NCBI RefSeq assembly: GCF_000313135.1
Contig: NW_004457271.1
Span: 23,035-70,534, forward strand
Length of the DNA: 47,500 bases
Source: Acanthamoeba castellanii str. Neff
Taxonomy: Eukaryota > Discosea > Longamoebia > Acanthamoebidae
Direction of reading: 5' to 3'
Made by a program: the position numbers and the translations under genes. The notes under the pieces are model-generated. The model was not told where the DNA came from and searched no databases. It saw only the letters and a program-made list of their open reading frames with translations. Shown here one piece after another: positions 93 to 47,500 of the stretch; positions within the stretch are counted from its first letter, which is position 1; the number at the start of each line of letters is the position of its first letter.

Positions 93-348
93 TATGTATC
101 GGGTCCTATCCCGCGAGGGCCAGGCCACGCCCTTCTGTACAAAAAGCCTCACATTCACTTGCGAACGCCTCTATTCAGCCAATGAAGCTGGAGTACCCTT
201 AACTTGCCTCTTTAACTTTAGGTGAGCAACCAATGGGCACGCACGACCGCTGAAGTGAAAACCCTGCTTCATCCACAAATGAGCACCTTCTTCTTATACC
301 CGCTACCGGTAGGCCAGTGCGTTGTACAACACAAGCAAAGAGAGAAGA

Positions 349-2508
349 TGAAGAAGGTCAAGGTGGTATTCGGAGAGTCGCGTCTGCTCATTCCGTGCGG
401 CGATGGCAAGGACAAGGTGGAGCGTCTCGTGGAGGACATCAACAAGCGCTTCCAGAGCCACCTCGGCGACCCCACCGCCCGGGCCAAGGAGCTCACCACG
501 TCCGACGGCTTCCTCGTTAATCCGCACGACGTAATTGATCACGTAATCGACGACAGCGTGGTGCTGCATGCGCTCGACTACGCGACCTGGCTCAAGGTCA
601 ATCTTACTCTGCTCGAAAAGGCCGGGCACAACCTCATGCGCCCCGACTACGCGGGCGGCAACTGGCGTCCGCCCTACCGCTACGCCGAGATCGGCAAGCA
701 CAAGCACAACAAGATTTACATCAAGATCGGCTCTGCTTCCGATGTCGTGGATCGGCTGGAGCTGTTCGATCTCGAGAGCCTGCGCACGTTCGGCAAGGAG
801 AACGACCGCGCCCTGATTGCCCACAAGGAAGTCAAGGAGACCACGGACGGCACCGCCTGGGATTGGTCCGTGCAGGTCCACTTCATCATCGAAAAGGGCG
901 TCGTCGTTGCTGCCGAGCTCTCCGTTCGGAGCACCAGGTTCCTCCTCCCACATTGCACAACAAAGATCGACATCGTGATTTGATTTTTTAATTGTTCGAT
1001 TTCTCTTTTCTGTTCTGCTTTGCAGTGATGCTCGTCCTCAGATTGAGGTGGTGCCCATCAACGGAGACCTCACCCTGGGCGCTGCCGTGGTGAAGCAGAC
1101 CGCCTCCTTCCCCAAGCCGGCGAAGGCCTACACGCTTCCCGAGACCAAGACCGAAGGACCCGCCTACGACGCCAAGGACTTCATTTCTGGTACCCCTACC
1201 CCCTTTCATGTGCCTGTTCACGTCATGCACAGGAGTGCAAGTCCTCCTGCATTGCTTCACTGCATCGTGATGACCTCATGAGTGATCGTCTTGCTCTGCA
1301 CCCACAGCCCACCTCGCGCCTTCGGGCATCGTTGAGAATCCTGTGCCCGAGAATGTTGCCAAGGGCGATCTGGGCATCGAAATCAAGCAGAAGGACGCCA
1401 CCCAGCCCGACCAGGTACGGTGCACTCACGCACGCACCTGCACCAACGTAGTGCACCACTCGCTTACGGTTCCTGCTCGTTCTCGCGCAGAGCTGGGCCT
1501 CGGGTGGAAGGTACTCGAATCTTTCTACAACCACCTTGCCCTTTTCAATCCGCTCGAGAAGGACGTCGCAATCGTCAAGGTCAAGTCCGAGTACGAGAAG
1601 GACGGAGAGTGGATCGAGATGAAGACCAGGTATCTTGCCTTTCACCCGTTTACCTTCCTCTTAGGGCTGTCGTGGTTGCTTGTTTCCTCACAAACCTGGC
1701 TGCACCAACAGGCTTGGTTCGAAGAGCGGTTACTACCGCTACTCCATGGGCTACCACGATGACGGCTTCGTGCTCGAGCCCAACCAGAGGCTCAACCTTG
1801 CCATTGAGAGCGCCGTCGAGGTCAAGGCTGCCCAGTACGATCGCGAAAGGTATACCATAGTCTGCCATCAGCTCCACAACCTTCTTCTTTTCGTGTACTG
1901 ACGTATTCGCTTTCTCACTCGCAGGCGGGCACACCACTCGCTTCCCTCTCCGTTCCGCATCCGTATCACCATCGTTGACAAGGAGGGCAAGAGCTCGCAG
2001 CTGGTGATCGAGCACTCCAACCAACCGCTCGTCCTCCCCACCAAGGAGTCGAGGGACAAGTCGGAGGACCGCGTCTGCGACTTCTGGATCTCTGCCGACG
2101 ACATCGACGGCGAAGCTCGCGTCTGGATCGAGGCCTACCACGTGCCCGAGGAGCACCGCGTGCAGTTCGCGAGCAAGCCCTCGGACAAGAGCAAGTACTG
2201 CTACAAGGACGACCTCGACTACCTCTTCTACCTCGCCAAGAAGGACAACAAGACCGAGATCGAGGTCGAAGAGCTCACCACCCAGGTACCACCACCTTTC
2301 TTTTGTTCGAGTCTTTGCTTCTCTCGTTGACTGTCCACTCAACTTATTGTGATTGACATCACAGGATGAGGGCCGGGGATACTCGCAGAAGGCCACCGCG
2401 CTGGTGGACCTGGAGAACAACTGGGTCTACGCCTTCCGCTTCGAGATCAAGACCAACACCTCCACCACCGTCGGCCACTACCTCCTGCCCGACCTCACCA
2501 AGGCCTGA
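349..2508 (+). CDS. Protein with PAR3 N-terminal (CR1/PB1-like) domain, rest unknown
   Basis: Start ATG at 349, stop TGA at 2506-2508. The exons I read are 349-937, 1026-about 1192, then about 1308-1415 and three or four more, with clean GT-AG borders. The N-terminus (MKKVKVVFGESRLLIPCGDG) closely follows the pattern of the animal PAR3 N-terminal domain: V-x-F-G-x-x-R, then PCGDG, then a helix beginning KV, then an acidic D-D pair near residues 68-72. In animals this ubiquitin-like fold polymerises PAR3 head to tail. I see no PDZ domains. The remaining roughly 500 residues are soluble, mixed alpha/beta and rich in charged residues (for example DFWISADDIDGEARVWIEAY); I do not recognise them. 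Known: the family's role in polarity scaffolds. Inferred: self-association. The gene is followed 87 bases later by the acylphosphatase-like gene on the same strand. Confidence 0.8.
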
Positions 2509-3217: not shown

Positions 3218-3933
3218 CTAGAAGAGGGTGCACTGCTCCTTGCCGCCCAGCTTGCCCAGGCTCTTCATTCGTCGCAGCGAACCCAGGCCCGACTTGCCGC
3301 CGCTCTCCTTTCTCTTCTTCTTGTCGCCTGAGTCGCTGGCGCACTCGATCGACTGGCGGATGGCGCGCACCAGCTCGAAGAAGGCCTGCTCGACGTTGAC
3401 GCGCGACTTGGCCGACGACTCGATGAAGGGGCAGCCGAACGACTTGGCCAGGTCGGCGCCCTGCGAGGTGGCGACCACCCGCGAGTCCTCGAGGTCGCAC
3501 TTGTTGCCCACCAGCACCATGGGCACCCGGTCCTCCTCCTTGACCCTCAGGATCTGCTCGCGGAACACGCTGAGCTCCTCGAACGACGACGTCGACGTGA
3601 TGGAGTAGATGCACAAGAAGCCTTGGCCGGTCCTCATGTACTGGTCCCTCATCGCACTGTAGGTGTATACCAGATATGGTGGGTGAAGACGAGTCATAAG
3701 AAAAGGTGATGGTGATAACAAAGATGATAAAGGGCGAACCTGAACTCTTCTTGGCCGGCGGTGTCGAGGATGTCGAGCAGGCAGGTGGTGCCGTCGATCT
3801 CGACCTGCTTGCGATAGGAGTCCTCGATGGTGGGGTCGTAGTCGTCCATGAACATGTGGTTGATGAGCTGGATGGTGAGGGCCGACTTGCCGACGCCACC
3901 AGTGCCCACTACGACCAGCTTGTACTCAATCAT
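3218..3933 (-). CDS. Ras family small GTPase with CAAX box
   Basis: Two exons, 3740-3933 and 3218-3656, joined within GAG TTC AG|T GCG so that the switch II reads [19 protein letters not shown]. The protein begins [20 protein letters not shown], has the effector loop [13 protein letters not shown], the guanine-specificity motif NKCD, the ETSAK-equivalent ESSAK, and a basic C-terminal region ending in the prenylation box CTLF. All GTP-binding motifs are present, with Gly12 and Gln61 as in wild-type Ras. Position 11 is threonine where most Ras proteins have alanine. The hypervariable region ([13 protein letters not shown] and onward) is longer and more basic than in human Ras and lacks an extra cysteine, so membrane binding probably relies on prenyl plus basic charge. 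The phenylalanine at the end of the CAAX box suggests geranylgeranylation rather than farnesylation. It is transcribed away from the carboxypeptidase gene. Confidence 0.96.
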
Positions 3934-42549: not shown

Positions 42550-43389
42550 TCACTTGTCAGGTTTAACGCACACGAGGATGGTGAAGGTGTCGTTCCACGA
42601 GAGCTCGCCCTCGGGCAGGCTCGCCCGCAGCTCTTCGAGATCGCTCGCCAGCTGGTCCGCCGACAGGTGCTCCTCGGCCAGGTTGGACCAGAAGCGCGAC
42701 GCCAGCAGTGTGAGCCACTCGCGCTTGGTCATCGACAGCGGATACTTGGCCTCGAAGGACTGCAGCTCGAAGCCGGCGGCCTCGATGGCCTCCTCCAGGC
42801 CGTGGCTGGCCCACAGCTTCTCCCAGGTGGCCACCATGCCACGCGAGAACGGGAACTCGGTGCGCAGCGGGCGCAGCATGATCACGACGCGCCCGCCGGG
42901 TGCCAGTCGAGCGTAGAGCGCGGGCCACATGGTGGGCCACTGGTCTTTAGAGATGAAGTGCACCATCTCCTTCATCAACACCCGATCGAACTGGTTCTGT
43001 TCTTCCTCTTCTTCTTCATTTCCGTGGTTGACGATGAACTCGAAGGCGCCAGCGACGACGGGCCGCAGGCCCTGCCTCTCGCGAGCCAGCTCTAGGAGGC
43101 CGGCCGACGGGTCGACGCACACGACCGGGTGGCGTGTCTGGAGGGCGGTGTGGAGGGCGTGGGAGAAGTTGCCGGTGCCGGCGCCCAGGTCGACGATGCG
43201 CGACGCGGCGGTGGCCGCCAGGTGCTGCAGGGCGAGGTCGAGGCACCAGCGGAAGTAGCCGCCGGTCTCCGTGTAGAAGGGGCGCGACTCGTATGCCGCG
43301 CCCTGCCCGTCCCAAAACCCCGTCGCAGTCTTGGTATCGTACTGCTGTGGCGCACCTGCAGTAGCGGCTGCGACCGCAACCTCCTCCAT
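42550..43389 (-). CDS. Class I SAM-dependent methyltransferase
   Basis: A single exon of about 279 codons, ATG at 43387-43389, TGA at 42550-42552. It has the SAM-binding fold in order: an N-terminal helix (TATGFWDGQGAAYESRPFYT), motif I SRIVDLGAGTGNFSHAL, motif II VVCVDPSAGLLELAR, an acidic loop with a Glu run (HGNEEEEEEQNQFDRVL), motif post-II KEMVHFISKDQWPTMW, then LAPGGRVVIMLRP and FELQSFEAKYPLSM. This is a methyltransferase of the small-molecule type (methyltransf_11/25-like). The substrate cannot be read off. The absence of introns contrasts with the flanking genes but codon use is similar, so recent transfer is not obvious. Confidence 0.88.
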   Translation of the reverse strand: MEEVAVAAATAGAPQQYDTKTATGFWDGQGAAYESRPFYTETGGYFRWCLDLALQHLAATAASRIVDLGAGTGNFSHALHTALQTRHPVVCVDPSAGLLELARERQGLRPVVAGAFEFIVNHGNEEEEEEQNQFDRVLMKEMVHFISKDQWPTMWPALYARLAPGGRVVIMLRPLRTEFPFSRGMVATWEKLWASHGLEEAIEAAGFELQSFEAKYPLSMTKREWLTLLASRFWSNLAEEHLSADQLASDLEELRASLPEGELSWNDTFTILVCVKPDK

Positions 43390-43616: not shown

Positions 43617-46600
43617 ATGCAGAACATCAAAGCGGTGGTACGTGCCCCTGATATCCTAGCCACGACACCAGAGTTATTAGTTGAATTAATTCAAATATTT
43701 TTTTTTCAAGCTCTCTTTCTTATTTTCATGTATGCCACCAAGCCAATTTTTCAATTAATTCAATTATGTCTTGATTTTTTTTGCACGTGCGCAGGTTGTG
43801 GGTGACGGAGCGGTGGGTAAGAGCTGCCTGTTGATATCCTACACGACCAACAGCTTTCCCGGCGAATACGTGCCCACAGTCTTTGACAACTACAGGTAAG
43901 TTCTACTCGTGTGGCATGGCCTTCCCCCTTTGTTTGACCGAACCAGACTCACGTCCGTATGTGTGCGTGTGTCTCGACATCAGCGCGAATGTGATGGTTG
44001 ATGGGAGGCCGGTGAACCTGGGCCTCTGGTACGCGCCACGCCACGTCACGCTCTCCCGGGGGTGTGGCCCTGCGTTTGTGGTGCTCTCCCCAGCTAACCC
44101 CCGGTGGCACGAACGCCAACAGGGACACGGCGGGGCAGGAGGACTACGATCGGCTGCGGCCGCTGAGCTACCCGCAGACCGACGTGTTCGTTCTGTGCTT
44201 CTCGGTCGCCAGCCCGACCTCGCTGGAGAACGTCAAGAGCAAGTGGATCGCCGAGATCTCGTACGCGTCCTACTCACCAGCACCAGCCTTGCTCTCGTAA
44301 ACTGACGACGACGACGACGACGACGACGACGTGTGTGTGTGTGTGTGTGTGCGTGTGTGGTGCGTGTGGTGCGTGTGCACCCACCCAGGCACCACTGCCC
44401 TGAAGTGCCCGTAGTGTTGTGCGCCAACAAGGTGGACCTACGCGACGACGATTCAATCATGTGCGCGGGCGACCCCTTTTTTTTATTTGTTTTATTCATA
44501 AAAGCTGATCAACTTTGTTGTTGCCTCCCCGCCAGTTCTCGGTTGAGGGACCGAGGCCAGCACCCGATCACCTACGACGAGGGAGCCGCCATGGCCAAGC
44601 AGGTGCGAGTGCTCTGATAAGTAAGTACTGGATCGGGGCTCGTGGTACTAACCACCTCCTTTGGACGTACATCCGTGGTGACGCAGATCGGGGCGGCCCA
44701 CTACGTCGAGACGAGCGCGTTGACCCAGGCGGGCCTCAAGAACGCGTTCGACGTGATCATGCGGGTGGCCATGGGCGGAGAACGTGCGAGCTCCTACAAG
44801 GGCAAGAAGTCCAAGGGTCGCGGCAAGGGCGGCAAGAGCGCCTACGACGCCAAGCCCGCACTCATCCCTCCGGTACCTCCCCACTCTGTGTGGCTGCACC
44901 AAGCTTCAGCTGAAGCCTTAACATATCACCACACACGCACACACGCACACGCACACGCACACGCACACGCACACGCACACGCACACGCACACAGGTGTTG
45001 CCGAAGCCTACGCACGCGCCGTGGACCAATATCCAGACGTCGACGTTCGCCGACGATTTCAAGGGCCTCCTCGAGTCGTCGGCCGAAGCCGACGTCAAGG
45101 TGCGCGGCGCCCCGCATCTTTTTGGCCCTGACGAGTCGACGAGCGGGGGGACTGAACTTGTTTGAGGTTTATGTGGGAATAGTTCGTGGTGGAGGAGAGG
45201 GCCGTCAAGGCGCACAGGGGTGGTGCTTGCGGCCAACTCGCTCCTCTTCCGCCGCATCTTTGGCGCCGACGGAGCGCAATCGGCCGAGGCTACGACAGCG
45301 GCGGCAGCTGCGACGGTCAAGGCCAAGGCCAAGCAGAGCCAGAGCCAGAGCAACAAGGCCGCAAGCAAATCCAAGAGCAGCACCAGCGCGAAGAAGAAGG
45401 GAAAGGGCGCCGACGACAAGCAGCAGCAGCAGAAGAAGAAGACGAAGAAGAACAAGAAGGAGAAGAAGAAAGAGGAGGAGGAGGAGGCGAAGGTTGAAGT
45501 CGCGGACACGAAAGGCGAAGAGGAGTCCAAGGAAGCCGATGGCGGGGAGGAGTCGGAAGTGCCCGAGCATTTCCTGTGCCCCATCACCCAGGAAATCATG
45601 GCACGTCACACCCAACAGTTACCCACACCACACGCGACCGCACACAGCGCGCGCGCATGCGCGCACACACACACACACACACCACACACCACACACCACA
45701 CACCACACACCACACACCACACACCACACACCACACACCACACACCACACACCACACACCACACACCACACACCACACCATACGCGACCGCACACAGCGC
45801 ACACACTAACTGGTGCCACGCGAGTGCAGAAGGACCCGGTGCTGACGTGCGACGGTCACACGTACGAGCGAACGAGCATTGCCGAATGGCTGCAGACGCA
45901 CTCGACCGCGCCGATCACCGGTGCCGAGCTGGAGAACAAGGCCCTGATCCCCAACCACCTAGTCCGGTCCCAGATCAAAGACTACCTCGACGCCCAGAAA
46001 CAGGGCGGCAGCGGCAGCAAGGCCGGCGCCACTGCAGCCAAGCAGCCCAAGCCTCACTCGGCTCCGGCCGTTGCCGAGGAGCAGAGCGAAAGCGAAAGCG
46101 AAGAGGAAGAGGAAGAGACGGAGACGCAGCACAGGGCCGACGCCGACCCTTCGGTGCCGCCTCTCCACCGTCAGATCAATGCCGGCCAGATCCCCGGCTT
46201 CTCCTCCATCCACCGCGGCCGTACGTCTGGTGGTGGGGAGGAGGGCGTCGCCTACACGATCGGGATCAGCAAGCGCGTCAGCCACGCCGTCTTTGCCAGG
46301 GTGCTCGAGTTCTTCTACACCGGCATCGCCACCATCCGCGACAAGCTGTACAGCTTTGCCCTCTTCTTAACCCCTTCGACCACCCGCTTGCGCTGCGCAA
46401 CTAACGTGTGATGTGCGCAGGGACGGGGTGCAGGACCTGCTGGCGGCGGCGGAGCTGTTCGGGCTCGAGCACCTGGCGACAATCTGCCGCAACGTGATGG
46501 ACGACAGCGAGTTTCTCAACCCGTCGATCGGGACGTGGCTGAACGACGAGGCGGGGGCGGTGGCCAAGCAGCTCTTCCTCAACCGGCCCCTCTTCTCCGA

Positions 46601-46720
46601 CGTGGCGTTCGAAGTCGAAGGGAAGCGCATCCACGCGCACAAGGCCATCTTGATGGGCCGCTGCAAGGTGCTCGCCGCCATGTTCTCCGGTCTCTTTGTC
46701 GAAGACTCCCTCGAGTACAC

Positions 46721-46777
<57 letters not shown>

Positions 46778-47500
46778 AGTGACACCTGTTGCGCTGTTTG
46801 CAAACACACGTTCAGACGATCCCTATCGGAGACACGTCGCTGGAGAGCTTCCTGGCCTTCCTGGAATTCCTCTACACGGACCACTCGCCCATCTGCGAGA
46901 GTGGAGACTCCGTCGGCATTCTCATCCTCGCCAACCGCTTCGGTACTTACCCGTTGCGTGATATGTGTTGCGTGTTGTGTGTGTCGTGCGTGTCGTGTGT
47001 GTCGTGTTGCAATGAGGCTCATAAACGTACACAGGGCTGCCGCGACTGGTCACCCTGTGCGAGCTCTACATCACCAAGGAGGTCGAGACCGCCACCAGCG
47101 ACGGTATCGAGAAGGCCGACATCGACGTGGTGGGCCTGCTTCACCTTGCCGAGCAGCACAACGCCGACCAGCTCGTTGGTACGCACACGCACCTCTTCAA
47201 AGAGAAGTGGCTTCTCGCCATCGTCGTGGTTGTTGTCGGCTGCCCGCGAACCACTGTGCCTGTTTTGATGTCATCAACTCGAAAACAGGGTTCTGCCGTC
47301 ACTTCATCGCGTCCAACTATCAGCCCATGAGCAAGCGGCCCGAGTTTAGCACCCTCGAAGGCGAGAACCTCGAGTACATCGAAGCCAACCAGGTGCGTGT
47401 GGTCCACCTCTTCCTCTGCTTTCTACCATATCTTTCTACCCCCGATGCATCCATCCGGTGCGAATGAACATGAACCGCTGACGGTTCTCGTTTCGTCACA
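43617..47500 (+). CDS. RhoBTB-like GTPase with U-box inserted in first BTB domain (3' end outside window)
   Basis: ATG 43617 (MQNIKAV, joined to [20 protein letters not shown]), running past the window end. Rho domain: [60 protein letters not shown]; all nucleotide motifs are intact. It then has RhoBTB-type [15 protein letters not shown] and the first half of a BTB domain ([35 protein letters not shown]). This is interrupted by a long charged insert (Lys/Glu-rich) and a U-box, [52 protein letters not shown]. The BTB domain then resumes ([38 protein letters not shown]), followed by a second BTB ([35 protein letters not shown]) and a BACK-like region. Such a protein could bind Cullin-3 through BTB and E2 enzymes through the U-box. 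One extra base at 45216-45220 shifts the frame in the first BTB half; two introns look GC-AG (45601 and 46719). Confidence 0.9.
43645..43794 (+). other. AT-rich first intron of the RhoBTB/U-box gene
   Basis: Runs from GTACGTGCCC to TGCGCAG. Much of it is A/T, with a perfect palindrome TTGAATTAATTCAA at 43681-43694 and a near-copy (TCAATTAATTCAATTA) near 43751. Confidence 0.8.
44304..44352. repeat. (GAC)n followed by (GT)n in an intron
   Basis: Nine GAC units (44304-44330) pass directly into about ten GT units, inside the intron between the Rho-domain exons ending KWIAEIS and starting [10 protein letters not shown]. Confidence 0.95.
44932..44994. repeat. (CACACG)n hexamer repeat in an intron
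   Basis: About ten CACACG units, the body of the intron that separates exon ...ALIPP from [10 protein letters not shown] in the RhoBTB gene; it ends in the acceptor CACACAG. Confidence 0.93.
45665..45779. repeat. 7-base minisatellite (ACCACAC)n, about 14 units
   Basis: A short CA run (45665-45681) followed by tandem 7-base units ACCACAC, within the intron that splits the U-box between QEIM and KDPVL. Reading frames through it (HTPHTTHH...) are artefacts of the repeat. Confidence 0.96.
46721..46776. repeat. (CGCA)n tetranucleotide repeat, 14 units
   Basis: Fourteen CGCA units directly after the exon ending VEDSLEYT in the second BTB domain. It is either the 5' part of a GC-AG intron or, if the downstream GTGACA is the donor, an in-frame coding repeat (Ala-Arg-Thr-His)n. 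Confidence 0.95.

What the first reader, a model, noticed from the sequence alone, without database searches (positions are those of the whole stretch)
43617..47500. Rho GTPase-BTB protein with a U-box built into its first BTB domain
Seen: intact Rho GTPase motifs, a first BTB split by an insert, and in the insert a convincing U-box ([34 protein letters not shown]), then a second BTB. Known: RhoBTB proteins have a bipartite first BTB and act as Cullin-3 adaptors; U-box proteins recruit E2 enzymes themselves. Inference: a GTPase-controlled protein with two routes to ubiquitin transfer, one RING/cullin and one U-box. Unlike human RHOBTB1/2, the GTPase here looks able to hydrolyse GTP (Gly12 and Gln61 equivalents kept). 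I know of no described protein with this order, but cannot search.
Basis: partly seen in the sequence, partly recalled or inferred. Interest (0 to 1): 0.92.

Follow-up and report, generated by a model that had tools for sequence, protein, structure and literature searches.

The report
RhoBTB GTPase carrying an internal U-box
An amoeba gene encodes a switch protein of the RhoBTB type in which a second kind of ubiquitin-ligase domain, a U-box, sits inside the first BTB domain at the place where an animal relative carries an insert of unknown purpose.

Summary
Fourteen exons (43617-47392) give a Rac-like GTPase (Pfam Ras 8e-52), a proline-containing linker, half a BTB (profile positions 2-44), a U-box (74 bits, E 1e-20), the other BTB half (56-109), a second BTB (77 bits) and the start of a BACK-like tail. 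Exons 9 and 10 each carry part of the U-box and part of BTB1, so two separate genes are very unlikely. The insertion site matches that of human RhoBTB2 (PMC1257465, passages). The genome is Acanthamoeba castellanii or close (actophorin 76/76 identical); a 2021 review lists only Rac and Cdc42 type Rho proteins there (PMC8305917, passages).

The 'two routes to ubiquitin' idea is only partly supported: the U-box has Gly where 10 of 14 readable U-box-like matches in this genome have Arg/Lys, and no clear Cullin-3 was found in the held, incomplete assembly. Filed as a new variant of RhoBTB.

The parts
43617..47392 (+). Visible part of the RhoBTB-U-box gene: 14 exons (43617-43637, 43795-43895, 43984-44028, 44123-44260, 44389-44460, 44536-44602, 44687-44872, 44995-45099, 45183-45600, 45830-46347, 46421-46715, 46816-46942, 47035-47178, 47289-47392); 3' end not in the window
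   Evidence: Exon borders set by reading; 11 of 13 introns GT-AG, one GC-AG, one TA-AG; GC3 0.73-1.00 in every exon
43617..44776 (+). Rac-like Rho GTPase domain, exons 1 to 7 (part)
   Evidence: PF00071 Ras 8e-52, 2.5e-51; G1-G5 motifs read in the translation
44777..45060 (+). Linker rich in Lys, Gly and Pro ([17 protein letters not shown]), exons 7 (end) and 8 (start)
   Evidence: Translation
45061..45270 (+). First half of BTB1 (up to A2), exons 8 and 9
   Evidence: PF00651 positions 2-44, 24.9 bits, E 2.5e-5, read with X at the frame change
45217..45220 (+). Reading-frame change inside exon 9, between KAHR and VVLAAN
   Evidence: Frames of exon 9; both sides have coding-like GC3, 1.00 (36 bases only) and 0.83
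45265..45561 (+). Left tether, 99 aa, Lys/Glu-rich, 4 of 99 residues ILVFMWY
45562..45991 (+). U-box ([13 protein letters not shown] in exon 9; [15 protein letters not shown]...KDYLD in exon 10), split by the intron 45601-45829
   Evidence: PF04564 74.1 bits, E 1e-20; PDB sequence matches to 1.3e-15; genome search hit at the same place, 46.8 bits for the exon-10 part
45992..46246 (+). Right tether, 85 aa, acidic, 7 of 85 residues ILVFMWY
46247..46508 (+). Second half of BTB1 (B3 onward), end of exon 10 and start of exon 11
   Evidence: PF00651 positions 56-109, 31.6 bits, E 2e-7
46581..47075 (+). BTB2, exons 11-13; phi-X-E-like FVE at 46695-46703
   Evidence: PF00651 6-108, 77.4 bits; FVE aligned to SPOP MEE
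47130..47374 (+). Start of a BACK/3-box-like C-terminal region
   Evidence: PF07707 23.4 bits (cut-off 20.9), positions 2-46 of 103; not among the 12 BACK places of the exon-by-exon genome search

Best explanation
This is a RhoBTB-type gene of Acanthamoeba (A. castellanii or very close), the only Rho+BTB locus found in the held assembly. It has a classical Rac-type switch and carries a U-box in the A2-B3 loop of BTB1, the site where human RhoBTB2 carries an insertion of unknown function. Shown: domain order, the complementary BTB1 halves, and the insertion site. Inferred: the BTB1 halves fold together around the loop; the U-box projects from BTB1 on two disordered-looking tethers (99 and 85 aa); the BTBs dimerise and so pair two U-boxes; the U-box recruits a charged E2 itself and ubiquitylates whatever the GTPase, BTB2 or C-terminus binds, including the protein itself. 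Because the GTPase domain of human RhoBTB is proposed to bind BTB1 and hold the protein inactive, the nucleotide state may gate the U-box here too. BTB2 may in addition dock a cullin.
For: Domain scores and complementary BTB1 halves. Both U-box exons also carry BTB1 sequence, in open frames. Insertion between A2 and B3 in human RhoBTB2 (PMC1257465, passages). BTB1 is bipartite, with an insertion of unknown function, and binds both Cul3 and the GTPase domain (PMC4931677, passages). Only place among 88 Rho-like, 58 BTB and 18 U-box matches in the held genome where Rho and BTB lie within 8 kb. FVE in BTB2 aligned to SPOP MEE. Low-hydrophobicity tethers.
Against: Frame change in exon 9 and a non-GT donor in one intron. 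Gly at the loop-2 position where 10 of 14 readable U-box-like matches of this genome have Arg/Lys may lower activity; among the 7 of these without a RING-like CPxC, 4 have Arg, 2 Gly (this one and L061) and 1 Asn, so Gly is not unique (by-eye alignment). No clear Cul3 found. No fold of the spliced protein was made. No data on expression or activity.
Confidence: 0.6

Rival explanations
1. An ordinary RhoBTB whose ubiquitin ligase activity comes only from a cullin bound by BTB2 (or BTB1); the U-box is an inactive or weakly active E2/ubiquitin-docking insert or a structural spacer.
For: Gly at the U-box loop-2 linchpin position; linchpin identity strongly tunes RING activity, and the authors extend the point to U-boxes (PMC12326332, passages); BTB2 keeps FVE aligned to SPOP MEE and a BACK-like start; human RhoBTBs act through Cul3, bound by BTB1 although that BTB1 also carries an insertion (PMC4931677, passages).
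Against: The U-box is otherwise complete (positions 1-72 of 73, 74 bits) and keeps the CPI and loop-2 Pro positions; non-Arg linchpins exist in working ligases (RBX1 Asn98, PMC12326332, passages); no clear Cul3 found in the held assembly.
Confidence: 0.25
2. A decaying gene (pseudogene) that once encoded this architecture.
For: Frame change in exon 9; TA instead of GT at the donor after exon 11; GC donor in the U-box intron.
Against: GC3 is coding-like in all exons, on both sides of the frame change; GTPase motifs, the whole U-box and BTB2 are intact; no in-frame stop elsewhere in the joined exons. A sequencing or assembly error is the cheaper account of such breaks, but was not tested.
Confidence: 0.12
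3. Two neighbouring genes, a Rac-like GTPase and a U-box/BTB protein, wrongly read as one.
For: None found beyond the fact that Rho-like, BTB and U-box matches also exist apart in the genome.
Against: Exon 7 runs in one open frame from the end of the GTPase into the linker; exons 8-9 enter BTB1; exons 9 and 10 each join BTB1 to U-box in one open frame; Rho, linker and tandem BTB is the known RhoBTB order.
Confidence: 0.02

Closest known systems
Dictyostelium RacA and amoebozoan RhoBTB (Dictyostelia, Variosea)
   Same: Rho domain, proline-rich region, two BTB domains, distinct C-terminal region (PMC8305917, passages)
   Different: No U-box is mentioned for them in the passages read; the review likens RacA's BTB1 to that of RhoBTB3, which has a shorter insert (PMC8305917 passages; PMC4931677 legend). 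Their sequences could not be fetched or compared here.
Human RHOBTB1/RHOBTB2
   Same: Same domain order and a bipartite BTB1 with a large insert (115 residues in RhoBTB2) between A2 and B3 (PMC1257465, passages)
   Different: The human insert is called an insertion of unknown function (PMC4931677, passages), not a U-box; human G12 equivalent is Asn and switch I is flanked by insertions (same source); here both are Rac-like by reading
Stand-alone U-box E3 ligases (plant PUBs, CHIP/STUB1, UFD2/E4)
   Same: U-box matches by sequence (7c96 1.3e-15, PUB12 8.4e-14, CHIP 3.4e-6; UFD2 4e-4)
   Different: Different partner domains; here Gly at the loop-2 position (7c96 has Gln there; that 7c96 is a plant PUB is recalled)

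Membership tests
RhoBTB | N-terminal Rho-type GTPase domain | tested here: met
   Ras 8e-52; G1-G5 motifs by reading
RhoBTB | Proline-rich linker after the GTPase | tested here: met
   [17 protein letters not shown] by reading; short, mixed with Lys/Gly
RhoBTB | Tandem BTB domains, the first bipartite, insertion between A2 and B3 | tested here: met
   BTB1 halves at profile 2-44 and 56-109, BTB2 6-108; site as in PMC1257465, A2/B3 assigned by reading
RhoBTB | C-terminal BACK/3-box-like region | tested here: inconclusive
   BACK 23.4 bits over positions 2-46 of 103; not listed in the exon-by-exon genome search; the rest lies past the window
RhoBTB | Groups with RacA/RhoBTB in a tree of the GTPase domain | not tested
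RhoBTB | Binds Cullin-3 | not testable with these tools
   BTB2 keeps FVE; no clear Cul3 in held assembly
U-box E3 ligase | U-box profile over its curated cut-off | tested here: met
   74.1 bits vs 21.4
U-box E3 ligase | U-box rather than RING: no zinc-ligand Cys/His set | tested here: met
   Only two Cys in the 67-residue domain (CPIT, TCDG), no CxxC pairs (translation); RING profiles stay under their cut-offs
U-box E3 ligase | E2-contact Ile (CPI) and loop-2 Pro | tested here: met
   FLCPITQ and STAPITG in the alignments; the role of these positions is recalled
U-box E3 ligase | Basic linchpin residue in loop 2 | tested here: not met
   Gly; of 14 readable U-box-like matches 10 have Arg/Lys, 2 Asn, 2 Gly including this one; of the 7 without CPxC 4 Arg, 2 Gly, 1 Asn (by eye). 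Not strictly defining: linchpin identity varies among E3s (PMC12326332, passages)
U-box E3 ligase | Ubiquitin transfer activity | not testable with these tools
   needs a bench assay

The most novel reading that the evidence does not exclude
In this amoeba lineage RhoBTB has become a self-contained, nucleotide-gated, single-chain ubiquitin ligase: the U-box inserted into BTB1 replaces the Cullin-3/RBX1 arm, in an organism that has lost or strongly diverged Cullin-3.
Probability: 0.13. Interest if true: 0.85.

Novelty: new variant of a known kind. Interest (0 to 1): 0.62.

Why it matters
The insertion in BTB1 of RhoBTB proteins has no known function (PMC4931677, passages). A lineage in which that very loop carries an E2-recruiting type of domain suggests that the loop faces the place where ubiquitin transfer happens, and gives a way to test it. 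A Rho-type switch, BTB scaffold and U-box on one chain could be a ligase directly gated by GTP. It also adds a RhoBTB to an organism for which a review lists only Rac and Cdc42 type Rho GTPases (PMC8305917, passages).

Tried and rejected
Two-gene reading: rejected, because exons 7, 9 and 10 bridge the domains. Assembly misjoin bringing the U-box in: unlikely, because the U-box is fused in frame to BTB1 sequence on both sides inside two exons and the exons keep coding GC3. Another Rho-BTB or BTB-U-box locus in the same genome: none within 8 kb on one strand apart from this gene; one U-box/BTB pair on C90 is 7.4 kb apart on opposite strands, and one Rho/U-box pair on C124 is 1.6 kb apart on opposite strands (a proximity test only, and the searches score only the best candidates). 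Relatives in prokaryotic genome contigs and viral contigs: none (a single-protein query reaches close relatives only), as expected for a eukaryote gene; these say nothing about other amoebae. Cullin-3: human CUL3 found its best matches in a locus (C44) that is Cul4-like by PDB scores (150 versus 81 bits). C9 is Cul1/2-like, C133 nearest Cul1 (110 bits, Cul3 83), C98 divergent, nearest Cul4A (61 bits, Cul3 36); C78 and C160 not classified. Four contigs (C9, C44, C98, C133) gave Cullin_Nedd8 matches. I take this as 'not found', not as 'absent'. Rfam found nothing over its gathering scores in the window. NCBIfam gave small_GTP over its cut-off and only sub-threshold matches besides, among them Rad18 for the U-box. 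A structure prediction was not run: the tool takes sequences read letter for letter from the DNA, and I judged that this spliced protein does not qualify and that a fold of one exon would not answer the question.
Full report
WHAT WAS CHECKED. The region was read and an exon model built. Fourteen exons between 43617 and 47392 join into a chain of RhoBTB domains: 257 residues up to a frame change and 523 after it, to the end of exon 14. Of 13 introns 11 are GT-AG; the one that splits the U-box is GC-AG and the one after exon 11 begins TA. Third-position GC is 0.73-1.00 in every exon in the assigned frame, 0.86 over the codons counted, and 1.00 (36 bases) and 0.83 on the two sides of the frame change. 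The last visible exon ends at a GT donor, and the sequence after the window could not be read, so the C-terminus is unknown.

DOMAINS. Pfam gives Ras 2.5e-51 for the first piece, U-box 4.1e-20 and BTB 1.8e-30 (two stretches) for the second. Scanned apart: GTPase 8e-52; first BTB half, profile positions 2-44, 24.9 bits; insert with U-box, positions 1-72 of 73, 74.1 bits; second BTB half, positions 56-109, 31.6 bits; BTB2, positions 6-108, 77.4 bits; BACK, positions 2-46 of 103, 23.4 bits. The two BTB1 pieces are thus complementary parts of one domain with the U-box between them. In the exon-by-exon genome searches the U-box part in exon 10 and two BTB2 pieces of this gene were found, but not the BTB1 halves or the BACK-like part, which are short or split by introns. 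PDB sequence matches of the U-box are 21 distinct sequences at E <= 0.001, best 7c96 at 1.3e-15; by their names nearly all are U-box ligases, one (COP1) is a RING ligase (some of these assignments are recalled). BTB2 matches SLX4, SPOP and Kelch-type and other BTBs.

WHY IT IS ONE PROTEIN. Exon 7 carries the end of the GTPase and the linker; exon 9 carries BTB1 helices A1-A2, a tether and the first 13 residues of the U-box; exon 10 carries the rest of the U-box, a second tether and the first part of BTB1b. A separate U-box gene would have to start and end inside these open frames. In the held genome, 88 Rho-like, 58 BTB and 18 U-box matches were listed; all 12 Rho-BTB pairs within 8 kb belong to this gene.

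WHERE THE U-BOX SITS. [quoted passage not shown] BTB1 binds Cul3 and the GTPase domain, and RhoBTB3 has a shorter insert (PMC4931677, passages). Here A2 is LLFRRIF and B3 AYTIGI (by reading), with 99 aa of tether, the U-box (67 aa) and 85 aa of tether between them. The site is therefore the same. RacA's BTB1 is said to resemble that of RhoBTB3 (PMC8305917, passages), so a gain of the U-box in the Acanthamoeba lineage is the simplest history; this is inference, since no RacA sequence could be compared.

THE ORGANISM. A cofilin-type exon of the genome is identical over 76 of 76 residues to PDB actophorin 1ahq; the next match, a second actophorin (7sog), is less alike. That 1ahq comes from Acanthamoeba castellanii is recalled. 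The genome held is 38.4 Mb in 250 contigs. A review that placed Rho GTPases of Amoebozoa in a tree found 5 in A. [quoted passage not shown] this gene is an addition to that list.

MECHANISM. Shown: domains, order, insertion site. From family knowledge: U-boxes recruit E2s; BTBs dimerise and bind Cul3; in the model for human RhoBTB the GTPase domain holds BTB1 in an inactive state (PMC4931677, passages). Inferred: a nucleotide-gated ligase with its own E2 arm. Against strong activity: the U-box has Gly in loop 2 (STAPITG). Of 18 U-box matches 15 were inspected and 14 were readable by eye: 10 Arg/Lys, 2 Asn, 2 Gly including this one. Seven of the 14 have a RING-like CPxC; among the other 7 there are 4 Arg, 2 Gly and 1 Asn, so Gly is a minority but not unique. 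[quoted passage not shown] For a cullin arm: BTB2 has FVE aligned with SPOP MEE; that this is the phi-X-E Cul3 motif is recalled.

CULLIN-3. Cullin-like sequence was found in six contigs. C44 is Cul4-like (150 bits to Cul4A, 81 to Cul3), C9 Cul1/2-like, C133 nearest Cul1, C98 divergent, C78 and C160 not classified. A search with human CUL3 found C44, C9 and C133 only. Cullin_Nedd8 matches lie in C9, C44, C98 and C133. No clear Cul3 was seen; since the held assembly is incomplete, absence is not shown. If confirmed it would favour the boldest reading, in which the U-box has replaced the cullin arm. Against that reading: human BTB1 binds Cul3 although it too carries a large insertion at this site, BTB2 here keeps a Cul3-type motif, and the genome has many other BTB matches (58) that would need a cullin.

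LITERATURE. Ten searches of the held open-access library were made. RhoBTB with U-box gave 6 papers (listing only: five on ubiquitin ligases or protein degradation, one on chorea); RhoBTB with Acanthamoeba 4 and with RacA and Dictyostelium 3, of which PMC8305917 and PMC8847673 were read in passages; four of five domain/Amoebozoa terms 12 (PMC12816148 and PMC4327156 read in passages); RhoBTB insertion terms 11 (PMC4931677 and PMC1257465 read in passages); Acanthamoeba castellanii with U-box and Rho GTPase 2 (listing); cullin 3 with Acanthamoeba 3 (listing); linchpin terms 17, 10 listed (PMC12326332 read in passages); RhoBTB with Amoebozoa 3; BTB with U-box and Acanthamoeba 1 (listing). None of the listings or passages I saw describes this architecture. 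Subscription papers, supplements and annotated proteomes were not searched, so an automatic domain annotation of this gene may exist.

LIMITS. The frame change may be an assembly error, an allele or decay; nothing here decides. No independent copy, transcript, fold or assay was available.

Noticed in passing
window 42553-43389 (-): A class I methyltransferase gene (Methyltransf_25, 9.1e-14) stands head to head with the RhoBTB gene, the start codons about 230 bases apart.
   Followed up: partly
window 3221-3925 (-): Ras-family small GTPase (5.6e-32), another GTPase gene in the same window.
   Followed up: no
window 222-983 (+): Open frame with a Par3/HAL N-terminal domain (1.1e-10).
   Followed up: no
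window 45664-45778, 46721-46776, 44940-44992: Long simple repeats (CACACAC x16.7, CGCA x14, CACACG x8.8) fill introns of this gene, including the intron inside the U-box.
   Followed up: no
G000:C99:165787-165969 (L003): A U-box lies in an open frame of 4825 codons without a stop, unusually long next to the short exons of the gene studied here.
   Followed up: no
G000 (38.4 Mb held): Of 88 places matching the Rho domain (some will be Ras/Rab kin), seven are near full length at 45-67% identity, so the review's count of 5 Rho GTPases for A. castellanii may be low even apart from this gene.
   Followed up: partly
G000 cullin loci C9, C44, C98, C133, C78, C160: No clear Cullin-3 among the cullin matches of the held assembly, although 58 BTB and 12 BACK matches are present.
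   Followed up: partly
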